Below, in pieces: positions 11,624-38,841 of a stretch of 64,000 bases of DNA. The DNA comes from Candidatus Blautia intestinigallinarum. Lineage in GTDB: Bacteria; Bacillota; Clostridia; Lachnospirales; Lachnospiraceae. The translations under genes were made by a program, and so were the position numbers. Location of the stretch: assembly GCA_019112635.1 (NCBI GenBank), contig DXIX01000012.1, forward strand, positions 1 to 64,000, read 5' to 3'. A model generated the notes under the pieces. It ran no database searches and was not told where the DNA came from. It saw only the letters and a list, made by a program, of their open reading frames with translations. Each line of letters starts with the position of its first letter. Position 1 is the stretch's first letter.

Positions 11624-13882
11624 ATGAAGTTATACGATAAAGGTGTTTATCTGGTGAATGGCCTGGACATCGTAGAGGAAGGACAGGGCCAGATCCCCAT
11701 CAGCAGGGAGGAAGCATCAGAAAATACCATTGCCTATGGGATTCTCAGAGATCATAATACTTCTGGTAATATGGAGAAGCTGCAGATTAAATTTGACAAG
11801 CTGACATCTCATGATATCACTTTTGTGGGAATTATTCAGACGGCCCGCGCGTCAGGGCTGGAGAGATTTCCGGTTCCTTATGTGCTGACGAACTGCCACA
11901 ATTCTCTCTGTGCAGTGGGCGGCACAATCAATGAAGATGACCATATGTTTGGTCTGACCTGTGCGAAAAAATATGGCGGCGTGTATGTTCCGCCTCATCA
12001 GGCCGTAATTCACCAGTATGCCCGGGAGATGCTTGCAGAGTGCGGCAAGATGATTCTGGGTTCTGACAGCCATACCCGCTACGGCGCGCTGGGAACTATG
12101 GCTATGGGAGAAGGTGGACCGGAGCTGGTAAAACAGCTGCTGTCTCAGACTTATGACATTAATATGCCCCAGGTGGTTGCCGTCTACCTGAAAGGAAGTC
12201 CAAGACCTGGCGTGGGCCCGCAGGACGTGGCTCTGGCAATCATTGGTGAAGTGTTTGCCAACGGCTATGTGAAGAATAAAGTAATGGAATTTGTGGGTCC
12301 TGGTGTGTCAAATCTGAGTGCGGATTTCAGAATCGGTATTGATGTTATGACGACAGAGACCACATGTCTGTCTTCCATCTGGCAGACTGATGATAAGATT
12401 GAAGAGTTCTACGCAATTCATGGAAGAAGCGAGTCTTACAAGGAATTGAAACCGGGACAGATTGCTTACTATGACGGTATGATTGAGATTGATCTGGATG
12501 AGATTAAACCGATGATTGCCATGCCGTTCCATCCGTCCAACACGTATACCATTGACGAACTGAAGGCTAATCTGATGGATATTTTGGACGATGTGGAGAA
12601 GAAAGCGCAGGTAAGTCTGGACGGTAAGATTGATTTCACTTTGAAAAATAAAGTGATTGACGGAAAGCTTTATGTGGATCAGGGAATTATTGCAGGATGT
12701 GCCGGCGGCGGATTTGAAAATATCTGTGCGGCAGCAGACATTCTGAAGGGCAAGAGCATCGGCTGCGATACCTTTACACTGAGTGTGTATCCTGCAAGTA
12801 CTCCGATTTATATGGAGCTGGCGAAGAACGGAACCCTTGCTTCTCTGTTGGAGACCGGAGCTGTGGTCAAGACTGCGTTTTGCGGACCTTGCTTTGGAGC
12901 CGGGGATACTCCTGCGAATAACGCGTTCAGTATTCGTCATACCACCAGAAACTTCCCGAACCGTGAGGGATCTAAGATTCAAAATGGCCAGATTTCTTCT
13001 GTGGCTCTTATGGACGCTCGTTCGATCGCAGCGACAGCTGCTAACCAGGGATTCCTGACTTCTGCGGAGGAGTACACAGGAACTTATACCAATCCGAAAT
13101 ATTATTTTGATAAAACAATCTATGAGAACCGTGTCTTTGACAGCAAGGGAGTGGCAGATCCTTCTGTTGAGATTCAGTTTGGACCGAATATCAAGGACTG
13201 GCCGAAGATGCCGGCACTGGCGGATAATCTGATTCTGAAAGTGGTATCCGAGATTCATGATCCAGTGACGACAACGGATGAGCTGATTCCATCCGGAGAG
13301 ACTTCCTCTTACCGCTCCAACCCACTGGGACTGGCAGAGTTCGCACTGTCAAGAAAGGATCCTGCTTACGTGGGACGTGCAAAGGAAGTACGGGCGGCGC
13401 AGGACGCAATCAATGAAGGAAAATGTCCGGTTGAGGCTCTTCCGGAATTAGAGAATGTGCTGGAAATAATTGCCAAGACTTTCCCGGAAGTCAAGGACGG
13501 AGCTTATGGCGTGGGCAGTACGATCTTTGCGGTGAAGCCAGGTGACGGCTCTGCCCGTGAACAGGCGGCTTCCTGCCAGAAAGTGTTAGGCGGATGGGCG
13601 AATATTGCCAATGAGTATGCGACCAAACGTTATCGCTCCAATCTGATTAACTGGGGAATGCTTCCATTTTTGATTGAAGAGGGAGATCTTCCGTTTAAGA
13701 ATGGGGATTACCTGTATGTTCCTCAGATTCGGAAAGCCGTGGAAGATAAAGCGAATGAGATCACAGCTTACACGGTATCCGGGGATGGATTGAAAAAATT
13801 CACAATGACCCTGGGTGAACTCACCGATGATGAGAGAGAGATTATCTTAAAGGGATGTCTGATTAACTACAACCGTAAATAG
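11624..13882 (+). CDS. aconitase-family hydratase (YbhJ-like)
   Basis: 752 residues, matching the length of the YbhJ-like branch of the aconitase superfamily rather than AcnA/AcnB (about 890/865) or LeuC. The order is swivel/cluster domains first, with [20 protein letters not shown] (about 143-162, close to the GTDSHT motif), a CAGGGFENI segment, and [20 protein letters not shown], which supplies two of the cluster cysteines. It probably carries a [4Fe-4S] cluster and hydrates or isomerises a hydroxy acid, but the substrate of this branch is not established. AAGGAGGA precedes ATG. Monocistronic with its own promoter and terminator; no citrate synthase or isocitrate dehydrogenase is near. Confidence 0.83.
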
Positions 13883-13889
13883 AATGTCA

Positions 13890-13936
13890 AATACCTCCGG
13901 CAGGTGTCAAGAAGCACTTGTGCGGAGGTATTTTTG
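13890..13936 (+). terminator. intrinsic terminator of hydratase gene
   Basis: AATACCTCCG (13890-13899) pairs with CGGAGGTATT (13923-13932), with an inner CAGGTG/CACTTG helix, followed by TTTTG. Confidence 0.85.
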
Positions 13937-14044
13937 AAAACAGAATAAATAATCTGAAAAATATAGAAAATATATAAAATTAATAGTTTTATGAAAAATA
14001 AATATTTAGAAAATAAAAAATAATAAAATTTATCAAAAAATGTA

Positions 14045-14073
14045 TTGACAAATAAAAAGGCGAGTGGTAGTAT
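14045..14073 (+). promoter_or_regulatory. consensus promoter of the large non-coding RNA
   Basis: TTGACA (14045-14050), exactly 17 bp, TAGTAT (14068-14073), preceded by about 90 bp of very AT-rich DNA like an UP element. The perfect palindrome TATGTACATA (14073-14082) covers the expected start site. Confidence 0.8.
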
Positions 14074-14079
14074 ATGTAC

Positions 14080-15148
14080 ATACAAACAAAGAAGCACAAA
14101 AAACAATCAAAAATCATTCAATTCATAGTATAAATTGCTAAGAAAAAGAGTGAGAGATAAGAAGGAGGTATCGTCCATTGGGAACATAGTTTAGAAAACG
14201 ATCAATATAAGAGTGGTGGACAGCAGTTCCTGCGAGAAAGACCGGATACATACAGTAACAAGGAAGATAGATCCTCTCATTTGATATAAATTAAAAAAGA
14301 GGAGAAAGTATCCAAGGTATTATAGAAGCTGATCCTTATATTGAATAATACCACAAAGCTGATATAAAGGTTTAAGAAGATGTGTAAAGAAACATTTCCT
14401 TAAAGAGTATAACTGCCTGACGCATAATCATACATTCGATAAAAGATAATTTGAGAAATTATCTTAAAAGTACTTCAGATAATAAGAATTGATATTAGAA
14501 AGATAATGATTGAATAAGGCAACGGTAATTTTCAAAAGAAGATGCTGTATGATCCCTAAAAATCGCTTCGGAATAATTATCAAAAAAGATCTTATTCTAA
14601 GAGTAGAAAACCAGTTTTACATATGATTCGAGAAGACGACAGGTAAGATATTTTGAAATCCATATAAAATCCTGATACATAGAACTTCGAAAGGACTATG
14701 ATTGAAAAGGATAGAATATGAATTGAAACTTTACATCAGATGGATAACGATAAACTGGCAACGTTATTCAAAAGCAGAGAATCAAAATAGAAGATACCTT
14801 AGGATGATACGAAAGAGATCAGTCTGGGATATACAAATTAAAAAAGATTCTCCATATAGATTTATAATCCGTAAATTATAAATCAAAACTCTATAGAACT
14901 TTCTAAGTAAATTGAATGATATTATCATTTCATTTATGAGCAGGAAATAAAAGAAAAGATTAAAAATAGAAAAATTAAATATGGAACATGAGAATTAAGC
15001 AGTTAATTTGATTGTAACCAAAGAAAAATTAATCTATAATTCTATCATTCGTATAGAGAGAAAGAAAGAGGACTAAAAAATTGAATAACGAGGAATTTTA
15101 AGACGGCCATCGTAATTGAAGAAAATTATGATGGTCGTCTTATTTTTG
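14080..15148 (+). ncRNA. candidate giant structured non-coding RNA (about 1.07 kb)
   Basis: No reading frame of useful length exists on either strand between 14107 and 15185, yet the stretch starts with a consensus promoter and ends in an 18-bp terminator. The + strand is strongly A-rich with A far above T, as in structured RNA loops. Perfect helices seen: GGATAC/GTATCC (14234-39, 14308-13), GGTATTAT/ATAATACC (14316-23, 14345-52), a 12-bp stem with one mismatch (14371-83, 14392-404), AAGATAATTT/AAATTATCTT (14443-52, 14456-65), a 9-bp enclosing helix (14502-11, 14572-81), ATAACG/CGTTAT (14744-49, 14762-67), GATTTATAAT/ATTATAAATC (14859-68, 14875-84) and AATTAA/TTAATT (14993-98, 15003-08). Some short pairings could be chance in AT-rich DNA. 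Size and style recall ROOL, GOLLD or OLE, but I cannot assign it to any. A decayed gene is the main alternative. Confidence 0.72.
15100..15148 (+). terminator. strong intrinsic terminator of the large non-coding RNA
   Basis: An uninterrupted 18-bp stem (15100-15117 with 15124-15141, two G-U pairs) with loop GAAGAA, followed by ATTTTTG. It lies 53 bases before the next start codon. Confidence 0.92.
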
Positions 15149-15200
15149 CTGTCCGATTGTGTTAAAATGAAAGTACTCGAAAAGCATGAGGGAGAAGATT

Positions 15201-15857
15201 ATGATCAAAGACTGGATTCTATATGAGGACAAGTATCTGATTGTGTGTGACAAACCGGCAGGGATGGCCGTGCAGAGTGCCCGGATTGGTCAGATGGATT
15301 TGGAAAGTGCGTTGAAAAATGAATTGGCATCGAGGGAAGCTGGGAAAATTCCTTTTCTGGGCGTGATACACAGACTGGATCAGCCAGTGGAGGGAGTAGT
15401 ACTGTTTGCCAAGGACAAGAAGACCGCTGCGGGTTTGAATGAACAGATGGCCAATGGAAAGATAGAAAAATATTATCTGGCGGTGACAGGAGGGACAGCC
15501 CTTTCACCAAGAGGCCGTCTGGAAGACTGGATCAAGAAGGAGAAGGGAAACTACTCGCAGATTGTGCCCCAGGGAACGAAGGGAAGTAAGAAGGCAGTTC
15601 TCGAATATGAGGTACAAAAACAGATGGGAGATAAAATGCTTGTGAAGATTCACCTGATGACGGGAAGACATCATCAGATCCGTGTGCAGATGGCCCATGC
15701 CGGAATGCCGCTCATCGGGGATCGTAAATACGGTCTTCCAGGGGAGGGGCTGGGACTGTGCGCATGCTGTCTGAGCTTTGTACATCCCGTGGGAGGAAAG
15801 CAGATGAATTTTGAGATTCGGCCCCACGGGAAGGTTTTTCAGAGCTTTTTTGAATAA
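15201..15857 (+). CDS. RluA-family pseudouridine synthase
   Basis: 218 residues, isomerising uridine to pseudouridine in rRNA or tRNA. It consists of the catalytic domain only, without the N-terminal S4 domain of RluC/RluD types. The catalytic Asp lies in HRLDQPVEGVVLFAK (about 53-67; the usual TSG after HRLD is VEG here), and TGRHHQIRVQMAHAG is the conserved C-terminal motif. ATG at 15201 was preferred over 15186 because GAGGGAGA lies just upstream. Its target RNA is unknown. It is the first gene after the large non-coding RNA, probably with its own promoter (TTAAAAT near 15164). Confidence 0.9.
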   Translation: MIKDWILYEDKYLIVCDKPAGMAVQSARIGQMDLESALKNELASREAGKIPFLGVIHRLDQPVEGVVLFAKDKKTAAGLNEQMANGKIEKYYLAVTGGTALSPRGRLEDWIKKEKGNYSQIVPQGTKGSKKAVLEYEVQKQMGDKMLVKIHLMTGRHHQIRVQMAHAGMPLIGDRKYGLPGEGLGLCACCLSFVHPVGGKQMNFEIRPHGKVFQSFFE

Positions 15858-15903
15858 GGAATTTGCGAAAATGCCATACTAAGCTGGAAAGTGTGGTGTG
15901 GAT

Positions 15904-16935
15904 ATGAGTCTGGAATTGAGAAGAAAGCTCTGTATTGCGGGAATTGTGATAGGAGTGTACCTGGGATTTCGATATCTGGTGCCTGTCGCAGTTCCTTTTT
16001 TCATTGGCTGGCTGCTGGCGGTCTGGATCTATCCCATGGGAGCATGGGCAGAGAGGAAAATACATTTGAAAAAGAACTGGGTTGGAACGGCAATTCTGTT
16101 GCTGCTTCTTGCTGTGTTTCTGTGGATTTTATGGATGTGCGGCAATTTGCTGTGGCAGCAGCTGCGACTGGCTTTTCAGAATATCCAAAAGATTTCAGAT
16201 TGGGCGTTGGAAGCGTTGGATCAGTGCTGTCAGGCTGCAGAGCGGATGACAGGGATTGAGAAAGAAGTCAGCAGAGGATTTGTTCTGGCACAGGCAGAAC
16301 GAATCCAGGAGCATGTGGCGGATTCTGTCACACCCAAGAATTTGTGGCGCCTTTTCTCCCAGGCGGGAAAAGTGATAGCCATCGGAACGGGAATGGTGAT
16401 TTCCTGGCTGTCGGGAATCCTGTTTTTACAGGAGATGGATCAGATCCGGCAGAAGGTAAGAGAATTTTCAGTTCTCAATGGAATTCGGCGCATCAGCAGA
16501 CGGCTCGGTCAGACGACTGCGGCATATCTGAGGGCTCAGCTGATGATTATGGCTGTGGTGGGGATCATCTGTACTCTGGGATTCTGGATGATGGGAAGTC
16601 CTTATTATCTGCTGTTTGGAATTGCTCTGGGAGTGTTGGATGCACTTCCAGTCATCGGCACAGGTACTTTTCTTTATCCGGCAGCTTTTTATTTCCTTCT
16701 TCAAAAGGAATTTACCATGGCAGCCGGGTGTGTGATTCTGGATTTGGTCACCAGTGTGGCGAGGGAATTTCTGGAACCGAAACTGATTGGGGGAAAGCTG
16801 GGAGTCTCCCCGGTGATTGTGCTGGCATCAGTCTATTTCGGATTCTATCTGTATGGCCCCTGGGGATTTCTGGCAGGACCTCTGTCACTGTCTGTGGCGT
16901 ATGAAATCGGAAAAGAATGGGATCTGTGGGATTAA
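15904..16935 (+). CDS. AI-2E transporter-family membrane protein (YtvI-like)
   Basis: 343 residues with about eight hydrophobic segments in the AI-2E/UPF0118 pattern: two N-terminal helices (IAGIVIGVYLGF; VPVAVPFFIGWLLAVWIYP), one near 60-80, a long amphipathic middle, and a C-terminal bundle with PYYLLFGIALGVLDALPVIG and the family-typical LEPKLIGGKLGVSPVIVLAS. Members export small molecules or work in sporulation (YtvI), but many have no defined substrate. A GTG at 15898 is an alternative start; neither has a strong ribosome site. It follows the synthase gene by 46 bases and may be cotranscribed. Confidence 0.85.
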   Translation: MSLELRRKLCIAGIVIGVYLGFRYLVPVAVPFFIGWLLAVWIYPMGAWAERKIHLKKNWVGTAILLLLLAVFLWILWMCGNLLWQQLRLAFQNIQKISDWALEALDQCCQAAERMTGIEKEVSRGFVLAQAERIQEHVADSVTPKNLWRLFSQAGKVIAIGTGMVISWLSGILFLQEMDQIRQKVREFSVLNGIRRISRRLGQTTAAYLRAQLMIMAVVGIICTLGFWMMGSPYYLLFGIALGVLDALPVIGTGTFLYPAAFYFLLQKEFTMAAGCVILDLVTSVAREFLEPKLIGGKLGVSPVIVLASVYFGFYLYGPWGFLAGPLSLSVAYEIGKEWDLWD

Positions 16936-17074
16936 ATTAAGGATTTTTCGTGAAAAAAATATAAAACCTCTGGACGAGAAAACGAAAAAGTGTATAATGA
17001 TTGAAGAATAATAAGGTAAAGTTTTTGTAAAGAGCACGAGTAGTTTGTGTAACATATATCTGGAGGGAGTTTCT

Positions 17075-18181
17075 ATGAGAAAAAGAATTGCGGCTGTGTG
17101 TTTGGCGGCTGTGATGGCTCTGACATATACGGGCTGTTCTCAGTCTGTCTCAGGGGAGACACATGAGGTGGTGTCGGAAGCTGTTCAGGAAGAGACAAAA
17201 GTGGGAGACGCGCAGGTGACAAATGTGCCTGAAAATACGGAAGAGACGGAGGCACCGAAGCTGGATCTGTCTATTCCGGTGGAAAAAGGAAGCAGGATTG
17301 CGGTTGTCGCAAAATCACTGAAAGGTGATTATTGGAAGAGAATCCGGGAAGGTATGCGTGACGCGGTGGATCAGATGAATGAGGCATATGGATATGAAGG
17401 GTCTGACCGGGTGACTTTGACGTTTGAAGGACCGGATAACGAGGCGGATGCGTCCGACCAGATCAACATTATCGATGCAGTTCTCGCAGAGAACCCGACT
17501 GTGTTGTGTCTTTCCGCTGTGGACGCGGATTCCTGTGCGGCACAGGTACAGACGGCCCATGAAAATGGCATACCGGTGATTATCTTTGACTCTGGGCTGA
17601 ATGATTCTAATGTGGACGGCGTGGTTGGCTCTGACAATACACAGATTGGCAAGACTGCGGCGGCGAAGATGGCGGAAGCATTGAATGATGAGGGCAAGGT
17701 TGCGGTTGTGGCACACAGTGAGATCGGAAAGTCCTCCCAGGAGCGTATTGATGGCTTTCAGAACAGTATGCAGAATATGCCAGGTATAGAAGTTCTGGAT
17801 CCTGTCTATGATAACAGCAATGAGGATTTGGCCGATCAGGTGGATCAGATTCTGGACAGCAACGAGGATTTGTCGGGAATTTTCTGTACCAACGGTGACG
17901 TTGTGGATACGGTGCTGGACTGTGTGAAAGCAGCCGGCAGAGAGAATCTTAAGATTGTGGGTGTGGATGGCACTTCCGGACAGCAGGAAGCAGTAGGTGA
18001 AGGATGGGAACTTGGATTTGTAGCCCAGAATCCTCATGAGATTGGATATCAGGCGGTACTGCAGGCTTTGTGTGCTGCTTTCGGAGATGAGAAAGAAGAT
18101 AATAACGAAAAATCAATTGAGGTTCAGTGGATTGACAGTGAGAATCTTTCAGATTTTGAAGGAACAGGATATCTGATGTAG
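17075..18181 (+). CDS. sugar-type ABC substrate-binding lipoprotein (Peripla_BP_4)
   Basis: 368 residues. The signal sequence MRKRIAAVCLAAVMALTYTG ends at a lipobox Cys (LTYTGC), so the protein is anchored outside the membrane. An acidic linker of about 45 residues precedes two Rossmann-like lobes of the ribose/galactose-binding type (GSRIAVVAKSLKGDYWKRI; VLCLSAVDADSC; IPVIIFDSGL; GKVAVVAHS; IVGVDGT). No permease or ATPase gene lies near, so it either serves a distant transporter or acts as a sensor partner. TGGAGGGAG precedes ATG and TATAAT lies near 17000. Confidence 0.88.
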   Translation: MRKRIAAVCLAAVMALTYTGCSQSVSGETHEVVSEAVQEETKVGDAQVTNVPENTEETEAPKLDLSIPVEKGSRIAVVAKSLKGDYWKRIREGMRDAVDQMNEAYGYEGSDRVTLTFEGPDNEADASDQINIIDAVLAENPTVLCLSAVDADSCAAQVQTAHENGIPVIIFDSGLNDSNVDGVVGSDNTQIGKTAAAKMAEALNDEGKVAVVAHSEIGKSSQERIDGFQNSMQNMPGIEVLDPVYDNSNEDLADQVDQILDSNEDLSGIFCTNGDVVDTVLDCVKAAGRENLKIVGVDGTSGQQEAVGEGWELGFVAQNPHEIGYQAVLQALCAAFGDEKEDNNEKSIEVQWIDSENLSDFEGTGYLM

Positions 18182-38604: not shown

Positions 38605-38625
38605 TACAGCAATTATAGGTATGGG

Positions 38626-38841
38626 AGATAGAGGTTGCGTTTTTCATCAGTATGCTGTCGGATGCGGCAGGCGCAGAGGAAGGCAGATGAAAGGGGAAAA
38701 CGCCGAAAGAACAGATTTCCTGGCAGATTTGTTCTTGGGCGCACAGTTAAGAACTGTGTGACTGTCATCGTAAGATGGTGCGCTATCTAAAGAGACAATA
38801 TCAGATTCTTTAGAGGCGGACGTGGGTCGGCCTCTTTTTTC
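38626..38841 (+). promoter_or_regulatory. lysine riboswitch (L box) with terminator
   Basis: P1 is AGATAG (38626-38631) with CTATCT (38783-38788). Inside it are the conserved AGAGGTTGCG, AAGGGGAAAACGCCGAA and GACTGTCATCG...GATGG blocks of the L box. The expression platform is visible: antiterminator TCTAAAGA/TCTTTAGA (38786-38793 with 38807-38814) overlaps both P1 and the terminator AGAGGCGGAC/GTCGGCCTCT (38812-38835, then T6). Lysine binding should favour termination and switch off dapAB. Confidence 0.92.

What the first reader, a model, noticed from the sequence alone, without database searches (positions are those of the whole stretch)
14045..15148. Candidate giant structured non-coding RNA of about 1.07 kb
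A consensus promoter (TTGACA-N17-TAGTAT) opens and an 18-bp terminator closes a stretch with no coding frame on either strand. The + strand is strongly A-rich with many perfect helices of 6-12 bp (listed in the feature). Size exceeds ROOL (about 0.6 kb) and GOLLD (about 0.8 kb) as I recall them, so it may be a variant of a known ornate RNA or a new class. It has its own promoter and terminator between an aconitase-like hydratase and a pseudouridine synthase.
Basis: partly seen in the sequence, partly recalled or inferred. Interest (0 to 1): 0.92.

Follow-up and report, generated by a model that had tools for sequence, protein, structure and literature searches.

The report
Giant bacterial RNA with tiny ORFs
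A one-kilobase stretch that looked empty is very probably a real RNA gene, kept by many bacteria of the family Lachnospiraceae, folded through a pseudoknot and carrying miniature reading frames on which ribosomes may start; it matches no catalogued RNA family we could search and its job is unknown.

Summary
Window 14045-15148 has a promoter, a long structured stretch and a terminator; 57 of 63 other genomes of the genus match it, mostly between the same two genes. Covariation supports the structure: 29 of 134 consensus pairs, two crossing helices paired in 98.6% of cells in 56 diverse sequences, one hairpin with 9 of 9 pairs compensated. Rfam 15 has no match. A covariance model finds it in 69 of 333 Lachnospiraceae genera sampled, with only weak hits elsewhere. 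'Non-coding' is only partly right: 94 of 97 homologues show a start codon beside the pseudoknot (A, G or T first, never C). Its frame is about 3 codons in the window's genus, mostly 15-18 in a second group and mostly 25-33 in a third. In the first two groups a second frame, usually six codons, ends at the foot of the terminator. Away from RNA-paired positions the first peptide shows no constraint. Best reading: a trans-acting structured RNA whose folding is coupled to translation. Transcription, translation and mechanism are inferred. New class; function open.

The parts
14045..14073 (+). Promoter: -35 TTGACA 14045-14050, -10 TAGTAT 14068-14073, with TG just upstream
   Evidence: same arrangement in the 56 rows of the genus
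14080..15148 (+). Inferred transcript, about 1.07 kb (start inferred from the -10 box, end from the terminator)
   Evidence: no transcript data
14162..14168 (+). Shine-Dalgarno-like AAGGAGG upstream of mini-ORF 1
   Evidence: sequence; duplex energy with the 16S tail against shuffles
14178..14189 (+). Mini-ORF 1: TTG GGA ACA TAG (three codons and stop)
14202..14211 (+). Helix H1, 5' strand (pairs with 14335-14344)
14213..14218 (+). Helix H2, 5' strand (pairs with 14349-14354); crosses H1 and so makes a pseudoknot
14227..14233 (+). 5' arm TTCCTGC of a proposed long-range helix (partner 14940-14946)
   Evidence: supported in the long-frame group only
14241..14318 (+). Hairpin with variable tip: 14241-14249 with 14308-14318
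   Evidence: genus; weaker in diverse sequences (56-78% paired at 14245-14249/14308-14312)
14321..14326 (+). 5' arm of a possible long-range helix with 14890-14895
   Evidence: standard pairs in 85-100% of rows, nominal p down to 3e-4, not significant in the all-pairs test
14335..14344 (+). Helix H1, 3' strand
14349..14354 (+). Helix H2, 3' strand
14359..14369 (+). 5' strand of the helix that closes the central domain (partner 14729-14739)
   Evidence: paired in 98-100% of sequences; no single pair significant
14372..14403 (+). Hairpin with the loop GTAAAGAAAC
   Evidence: a matching motif in 20 of 32 long-frame sites
14657..14724 (+). Covarying hairpin 14657-14666 with 14715-14724
14729..14739 (+). 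3' strand of the central-domain helix
14859..14884 (+). Hairpin; in the alignment of 52 sequences 9 of 9 pairs show compensated changes
14940..14946 (+). 3' arm GCAGGAA of the proposed long-range helix
15081..15101 (+). Mini-ORF 2: TTG AAT AAC GAG GAA TTT TAA (six codons and stop), stop codon at the foot of the terminator
15099..15147 (+). Intrinsic terminator, stem 15099-15142 and T run

Best explanation
It is an independent chromosomal RNA gene, one copy in most genomes where it was found, of a class seen so far only in Lachnospiraceae apart from weak matches. The RNA folds around a pseudoknot (H1/H2), probably with long-range helices that tie its first and last thirds together, and most likely acts in trans. 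A ribosome is drawn to a start site just upstream of the pseudoknot and begins a short frame. In genera with a 15-36-codon frame the frame runs through the 5' strands of H1 and H2, so translation would hold the fold open; in the window's genus the frame stops after about three codons, so the ribosome would only sit beside the pseudoknot. I propose that ribosome loading sets the fold, making the RNA a reporter or dock of translation state, and that the act of starting translation is what is kept rather than the peptide. Shown by computation: conserved gene, structure, start site and frames. Inferred: transcription, translation, trans action, coupling. What the RNA acts on is unknown.
For: Matches in 57 of 63 other genomes of the genus and in 69 of 333 genera of the family, the window's included. 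Covariation. Long-range arm: of 38 long-frame sequences, 19 hold the complement of their own arm against 4.1 for swapped arms. Start: in the 94 of 97 sequences where it was located the first letter is A 32, G 23, T 39, C 0, with at least 20 changes on the tree. Early stop in the genus: 49 of 54 in frame, 8 and 11 in the other frames. Pairing of the upstream stretch to the 16S tail is stronger than in shuffles (means -9.45 against -5.34 kcal/mol in the genus). In the long-frame group the frame stays open while amino acids outside the RNA-paired core vary about equally at all three codon positions. The next gene is convergent at 10 of 62 sites outside the genus and its kind differs between genera, against a cis role.
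Against: No transcript, ribosome-profiling or probing data. The Shine-Dalgarno region is predicted neither more nor less open than the rest of the RNA (65 sequences, folds without pseudoknots), so no switch shows in the fold. The start-site patterns asked for a purine-rich stretch, and for at least 5 of 6 matches to AGGAGG, so presence of a Shine-Dalgarno is partly built in; in the genus only 17 of 54 beat the 5% shuffle quantile. The long-range arm is not supported in the second group (5 of 40 own, 3.3 swapped) and hardly tested in the genus (49 of 56 own, 37.4 swapped). The next gene lies on the same strand at 52 of 62 sites outside the genus and 52 of 54 inside, so a cis role is not excluded everywhere.
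Confidence: 0.45

Rival explanations
1. A conventional dual-function RNA or small mRNA: the 25-36 aa peptide is the product in many genera, the structure is regulatory untranslated RNA, and the window's genus has the RNA without the peptide.
For: An open frame of 15-36 codons at 32 of 44 long-frame sites, with a shared Q-Y-x-x-G core; strong Shine-Dalgarno there, though the selection asked for it.
Against: The Q-Y-x-x-G core coincides with the 5' strands of H1 and H2; elsewhere variation is alike at the three codon positions. No Pfam or NCBIfam match for four peptides. The frame has only 2-5 codons in most of the window's genus, 2-4 in 11 of 54 sequences and 2-3 at 6 of 41 sites, while the RNA persists.
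Confidence: 0.25
2. A giant RNA assembly of the ROOL/GOLLD sort: a self-assembling RNA particle, with the start sites incidental or used only to stabilise the RNA.
For: Size, pseudoknot and many covarying helices.
Against: No Rfam match; no match of a 251-base query in phage or plasmid records; no tRNA in the window; start letter and early stop look constrained. None of this excludes assembly as such.
Confidence: 0.15
3. A cis-acting leader: ribosomes finishing mini-ORF 2 at the foot of the terminator prevent termination and let transcription run into the next gene.
For: In 94 of 97 sequences a frame of at most 9 codons ends -2 to +5 bases from the terminator stem; the next gene is on the same strand at most sites.
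Against: The next gene is convergent at 10 of 62 sites outside the genus and its kind differs (crude ORF calls); most of the 13 long-frame loci read by eye lack the TTG; Shine-Dalgarno pairing before mini-ORF 2 is weak (4 of 56 and 0 of 41 beat the 5% quantile).
Confidence: 0.1
4. A ribosome or tRNA sink: miniature frames on an abundant RNA tie up ribosomes or release peptidyl-tRNA early, as minigenes can (listing only).
For: Two frames of about 3 and 6 codons on one RNA.
Against: It does not explain the elaborate conserved fold, nor the 25-36-codon frames elsewhere.
Confidence: 0.05

Closest known systems
ROOL and GOLLD RNAs
   Same: Large, ornate, pseudoknotted bacterial RNAs of unknown function
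   Different: No Rfam match in the window or in 37 homologous loci. Those are described from phages and prophages, often near tRNAs (passages of PMC12286853); a 251-base query from this RNA matched none of 50,697 phage records. Recurring start codons and short frames here
OLE RNA
   Same: Large structured RNA of Gram-positive bacteria; ribosomal protein bS21 is reported as a component of its complex (title and start of abstract of PMC12054373 in a listing)
   Different: About 600 nt in print (listing); no Rfam match here; OLE partner proteins were not searched for
Dual-function RNAs: RNAIII, SR1, VcdRP
   Same: A regulatory RNA that also holds a short translated frame (starts of abstracts in listings; that RNAIII's frame is delta-hemolysin is recalled)
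   Different: For SR1 and VcdRP the listings name a small protein as product; here the peptide is about three residues in the window's genus and shows no constraint elsewhere outside RNA-paired positions; the RNA is larger and heavily structured
tmRNA
   Same: Structured RNA with pseudoknots and a very short frame (recalled)
   Different: The window's genome has a tmRNA on another contig (C37); ARAGORN finds none in the window

Membership tests
ROOL (Rfam) | Match to the family's covariance model | tested here: not met
   cmscan of 12000-17500 to E = 10 and of 37 homologous loci to E = 1: no ROOL match
ROOL (Rfam) | Phage or prophage setting, often near tRNAs (passages of PMC12286853) | tested here: not met
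   251-base query: no match in phage or plasmid records; strict pattern: none in viral contigs; no tRNA in the window; aconitase and pseudouridine synthase genes on either side
GOLLD (Rfam) | Match to the family's covariance model | tested here: not met
OLE (Rfam) | Match to the family's covariance model | tested here: not met
ROOL, GOLLD, OLE | RNA-only homo-oligomer in cryo-EM | not testable with these tools
   Needs purified RNA
raiA motif RNA | Match to the Rfam model | tested here: not met
   (that Rfam 15 holds raiA, ROOL, GOLLD and OLE models is recalled)
tmRNA | Match to RF00023 or ARAGORN | tested here: not met
   None in the window; the genome's tmRNA lies on another contig
Dual-function regulatory RNA | Conserved start site and short open frame | tested here: met
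   (computed, not shown to be translated)
Dual-function regulatory RNA | Peptide conserved as a peptide | tested here: inconclusive
   Core residues coincide with paired RNA; elsewhere no codon-position bias
Dual-function regulatory RNA | RNA acts by itself on other targets | not testable with these tools
   Needs deletion and complementation
Cis-acting leader or riboswitch | Same-strand downstream gene of a consistent kind | tested here: not met
   Kinds differ (pseudouridine synthase, TPR protein, others); 10 of 62 sites outside the genus are convergent

The most novel reading that the evidence does not exclude
A new kind of RNA device in which starting translation, not the peptide, is the conserved function: ribosomes loading on a miniature frame hold open or release a pseudoknotted kilobase RNA that then acts in trans. 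The frame differs in length between lineages, from 2 to 36 codons, while start site and fold stay (which way it changed was not tested).
Probability: 0.33. Interest if true: 0.95.

Novelty: new variant of a known kind. Interest (0 to 1): 0.85.

Why it matters
Large structured bacterial RNAs are few and their functions mostly unknown. This adds a class that many Lachnospiraceae keep in their chromosomes, including cultured strains such as Blautia hansenii MSK.15.26 and Lactonifactor longoviformis DSM 17459, in which it could be probed. Its recurring start sites tie such an RNA to the ribosome and give concrete mutations to test. A frame whose length differs so much between genera while the RNA around it stays also bears on how coding and non-coding RNA pass into one another.

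Tried and rejected
Decayed gene or empty spacer: rejected (covariation, similar ends, synteny). Known Rfam family: rejected; the best sub-threshold matches in the first 20 homologous loci were Clostridiales-1 on the minus strand of L021 (E 0.047) and sR1 (E 0.61). Phage-borne RNA: no match of 14150-14400 in phages or plasmids, none in viral contigs with one strict pattern; a second pattern matched one viral contig near the start of the fetched stretch, which I read as a prophage that ends in host DNA. A helix closing the 5' end on the 3' end (14116-14123 with 15079-15086) is paired in most rows of the genus but does not covary and was not found by eye in other genera; not claimed. RNAalifold's pairing of the -35 box (counted among the 134 pairs) looks like an artefact of forbidding the pseudoknot. 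Shine-Dalgarno sequestration: not seen. A distal CCTCCGA that could pair with an internal TCGGAG or with the Shine-Dalgarno site occurs at 24 of the 32 sites with at least 20 codons; covariation not tested.

Weak points of my own tests. The covariation test is my own script, an imitation of R-scape with a parsimony null, not R-scape; the tested structure was predicted from the same alignment. The frame control for mini-ORF 2 is uninformative: frame +2 has a stop in 95 of 97 because of the conserved TTGAATAA. Its support is that the first in-frame stop falls at the terminator foot as TAG 39, TAA 33 or TGA 22 (94 of 97, at least 24 changes) and that lengths of 5 to 8 codons keep frame. The three other rows: L056 has no stop at the foot; L073 and L086 were anchored on a CTG, and by eye each has a TTG frame that ends at the foot. 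In one search, of 32 sites with at least 20 codons the Q-Y motif is in frame at 27, out of frame at 3 (at L259 and L281 an earlier chance CAATAT was scored) and missing at 2. One search allowed only A, G or T as first letter and asked for an in-frame Q-Y and at least 5 of 6 Shine-Dalgarno matches, so its 32 of 44 and 36 of 52 are a selected set; the '29 of 29' is drawn from it and is circular. Exceptions to the short frame in the genus: L056, L065, L074 and L087 have 10 to 28 codons. At E <= 0.001 one search also matched 10 of 81 genomes outside the genus, most of them probably by chance; R1 and R2 confirm G073. G053, a weak match in the genus, was not fetched. Rows dropped: L079 and L080 (one RNA split over two contigs), L088 (no terminator found, run of N), and 14 of 55 distinct sequences without promoter or terminator. 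The family, order and class searches are samples run with stricter filters and can miss weak members. The window's genus is not named by the tools.

Full report
Observation. Between an aconitase gene (Pfam Aconitase, E 8.5e-94) and a pseudouridine synthase gene (PseudoU_synth_2, E 3.3e-32) lies an A-rich stretch with a promoter at 14045-14073 and a terminator at 15099-15142. On the window alone these are no more than chance gives. 14080-15075 folds better than 20 of 20 dinucleotide shuffles (z = -3.72). Rfam matches up to E = 10 in 12000-17500 are four, all far below their gathering scores.

Homologues. A DNA search of 145 genomes, the own one included, matched 68 at E <= 0.001: the own, 57 of 63 others of the genus, and 10 of 81 outside it. 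The last are mostly E 2e-4 to 9e-4 and probably chance, except G073, which both covariance models confirm. I fetched 57 loci from 56 of the 57 genomes of the genus; 55 gave a full promoter-to-terminator sequence and one genome has the RNA split over two contigs. With the window these 56 rows run from 645 to 1172 bases. Of the 55 loci, the next gene downstream belongs to the pseudouridine synthase cluster in 46 and the next upstream to the aconitase cluster in 38 (crude ORF calls, some contigs end early). A covariance model of the 5' part (R1) found 28 of 348 genomes of the family (25 of 333 genera). A second, from 56 diverse sequences (R2), found 73 of 348 (69 of 333 genera, the window's included). 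Elsewhere only weak matches came up: one in a class search of 391 with R1 (G673, E 1.4e-3) and four in an order search of 392 with R2 (E 7e-4 to 8e-3); both samples also hold members of the family. Named carriers come from one pattern scan of genome contigs with 45 matches: Blautia hansenii, Blautia parvula, Lactonifactor longoviformis, Anaerosacchariphilus polymeriproducens, Candidatus Scatomonas species and others.

Structure. In the genus an all-pairs test gave 6 column pairs of 442,106 with E < 1, standard in 85-100% of cells; 29 of 134 pairs of the RNAalifold consensus passed E < 0.05. With 97 sequences (56 of the genus, 41 others) 22 of 80 consensus pairs passed, and the 6 pairs with E < 0.5 in the all-pairs test were 87-100% standard. 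Helices H1 (14202-14211 with 14335-14344) and H2 (14213-14218 with 14349-14354) cross and so form a pseudoknot. In 56 diverse sequences they are paired in 98.6% of 880 cells and 12 of 16 pairs have changes on both sides; 0 of 500 shuffles reach this and the six slid versions are 25-46% paired. The hairpin at 14859-14884 has compensated changes in 9 of 9 pairs in 52 sequences. A long-range helix is proposed between TTCCTGC (14227-14233) and GCAGGAA (14940-14946). In the genus it hardly varies: 49 of 56 hold their own complement, but swapped arms give 37.4. In 38 long-frame sequences (of 45; no arm was found in 7) with 21 different arms, 19 hold the complement of their own arm, swapped arms 4.1 on average and at most 10 in 500 trials. 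In 40 of the second group it is 5 against 3.3, no support. A second possible long-range helix, 14321-14326 with 14890-14895, has nominal p values down to 3e-4 but is not significant among all pairs.

Mini-ORF 1. In 94 of 97 sequences a pattern that asked for a purine-rich stretch and NTG found a start codon upstream of the pseudoknot. Its first letter is A 32, G 23, T 39, C 0, with at least 20 changes on the tree. In the genus a stop falls within codons 2-6 in 49 of 54 sequences, against 8 and 11 in the other two frames; the window reads TTG GGA ACA TAG. In a second group, 36 of 52 sequences have an in-frame Q-Y core and 15-31 codons, mostly 15-18, most of them with Q-Y-E-S-G near the end; in a third, 32 of 44 have 15-36 codons, mostly 25-33, often with Q-Y-V-S-G (selection rules under Tried and rejected). 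Some members of both groups have 2-4 codons instead (11 of 54; 6 of 41 sites). Pairing of the upstream 18 bases to the 16S tail averages -9.45, -11.34 and -12.82 kcal/mol in the three groups against about -5.3 in shuffles; 17 of 54, 33 of 40 and 29 of 29 beat the 5% quantile (probe recalled; the last set had been chosen for its Shine-Dalgarno). The Q-Y-x-x-G core lies on the 5' strands of H1 and H2. Around it, variation is about equal at the three codon positions. So the frame is open but the peptide, apart from residues tied to RNA pairing, looks free. Pfam and NCBIfam have no match for four examples.

Mini-ORF 2. In the genus and the second group, 94 of 97 sequences have a frame of at most 9 codons, usually TTG AAT AAn GAA GAn nnn stop, that ends -2 to +5 bases from the terminator stem. 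The stop is TAG 39, TAA 33, TGA 22, with at least 24 changes, and lengths of 5, 6, 7 and 8 codons keep frame. Against it: weak Shine-Dalgarno pairing, and a stop in frame +2 in 95 of 97, so the frame control says nothing. Most of the 13 third-group loci read by eye lack the TTG.

How it may work. The gene has its own promoter and terminator, sits beside different genes in different genera, and is followed by a convergent gene at 10 of 62 sites outside the genus, so it most likely acts in trans. The constant features are the fold and the place where a ribosome would start; length and letters of the peptide are not constant. I therefore propose that loading of a ribosome sets the fold of the pseudoknot region. 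In long-frame genera the ribosome would run through the 5' strands of H1 and H2 and often the long-range arm; in the window's genus it would halt just before them. Every step after 'a recurring start site beside a conserved pseudoknot' is inference. Predicted folds neither hide nor expose the Shine-Dalgarno site more than average (65 sequences).

Known classes. ROOL and GOLLD are nearest in size and complexity, but are described from phages and prophages, often near tRNAs (passages of PMC12286853). No Rfam scan matched, a 251-base query found nothing in phage and plasmid records, and the window has no tRNA. tmRNA is present elsewhere in the genome. Dual-function RNAs such as RNAIII, SR1 and VcdRP (starts of abstracts in listings) share the idea of a frame on a regulatory RNA. 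The 50-genome ncRNA screen (PMC11109978, term search of its main text) does not mention Lachnospiraceae, Blautia, Roseburia or Butyrivibrio. That this RNA is not in print rests on eight searches of the open-access library, none of which targeted its sequence, and on Rfam 15; most subscription papers, preprint servers and supplementary tables were not searched.

Noticed in passing
window 38621-38793 (+): Lysine riboswitch above the Rfam gathering score (116.5 bits); the only such match in the window.
   Followed up: no
A prophage may sit beside the RNA gene, whose 3' end might serve as an integration site; integrase and att sites were not searched for.
   Followed up: partly
L034 and L076, upstream of the RNA: A second, inverted copy of about the last 50 bases before the terminator (query 1016-1067); the R2 model finds no second 5' module there.
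   Followed up: partly
   Followed up: no
sites outside the window's genus, e.g. L261: One protein family is the next gene downstream at 22 of the 62 sites with a downstream gene; a fragment from L261 that fits this family has tetratricopeptide repeats.
   Followed up: partly
long-frame loci such as L259, L261, L276: An internal TCGGAG and a distal CCTCCGA that could pair with it or with the Shine-Dalgarno site of mini-ORF 1: a possible switch.
   Followed up: partly
window 14372-14403 and relatives: Hairpin loop GTAAAGAAAC; a matching motif in 20 of 32 long-frame sites, possibly a binding site.
   Followed up: no
L279 275-548: T-box-like match below the gathering score (61.1 bits against 93, E 7e-11), away from the RNA.
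   Followed up: no
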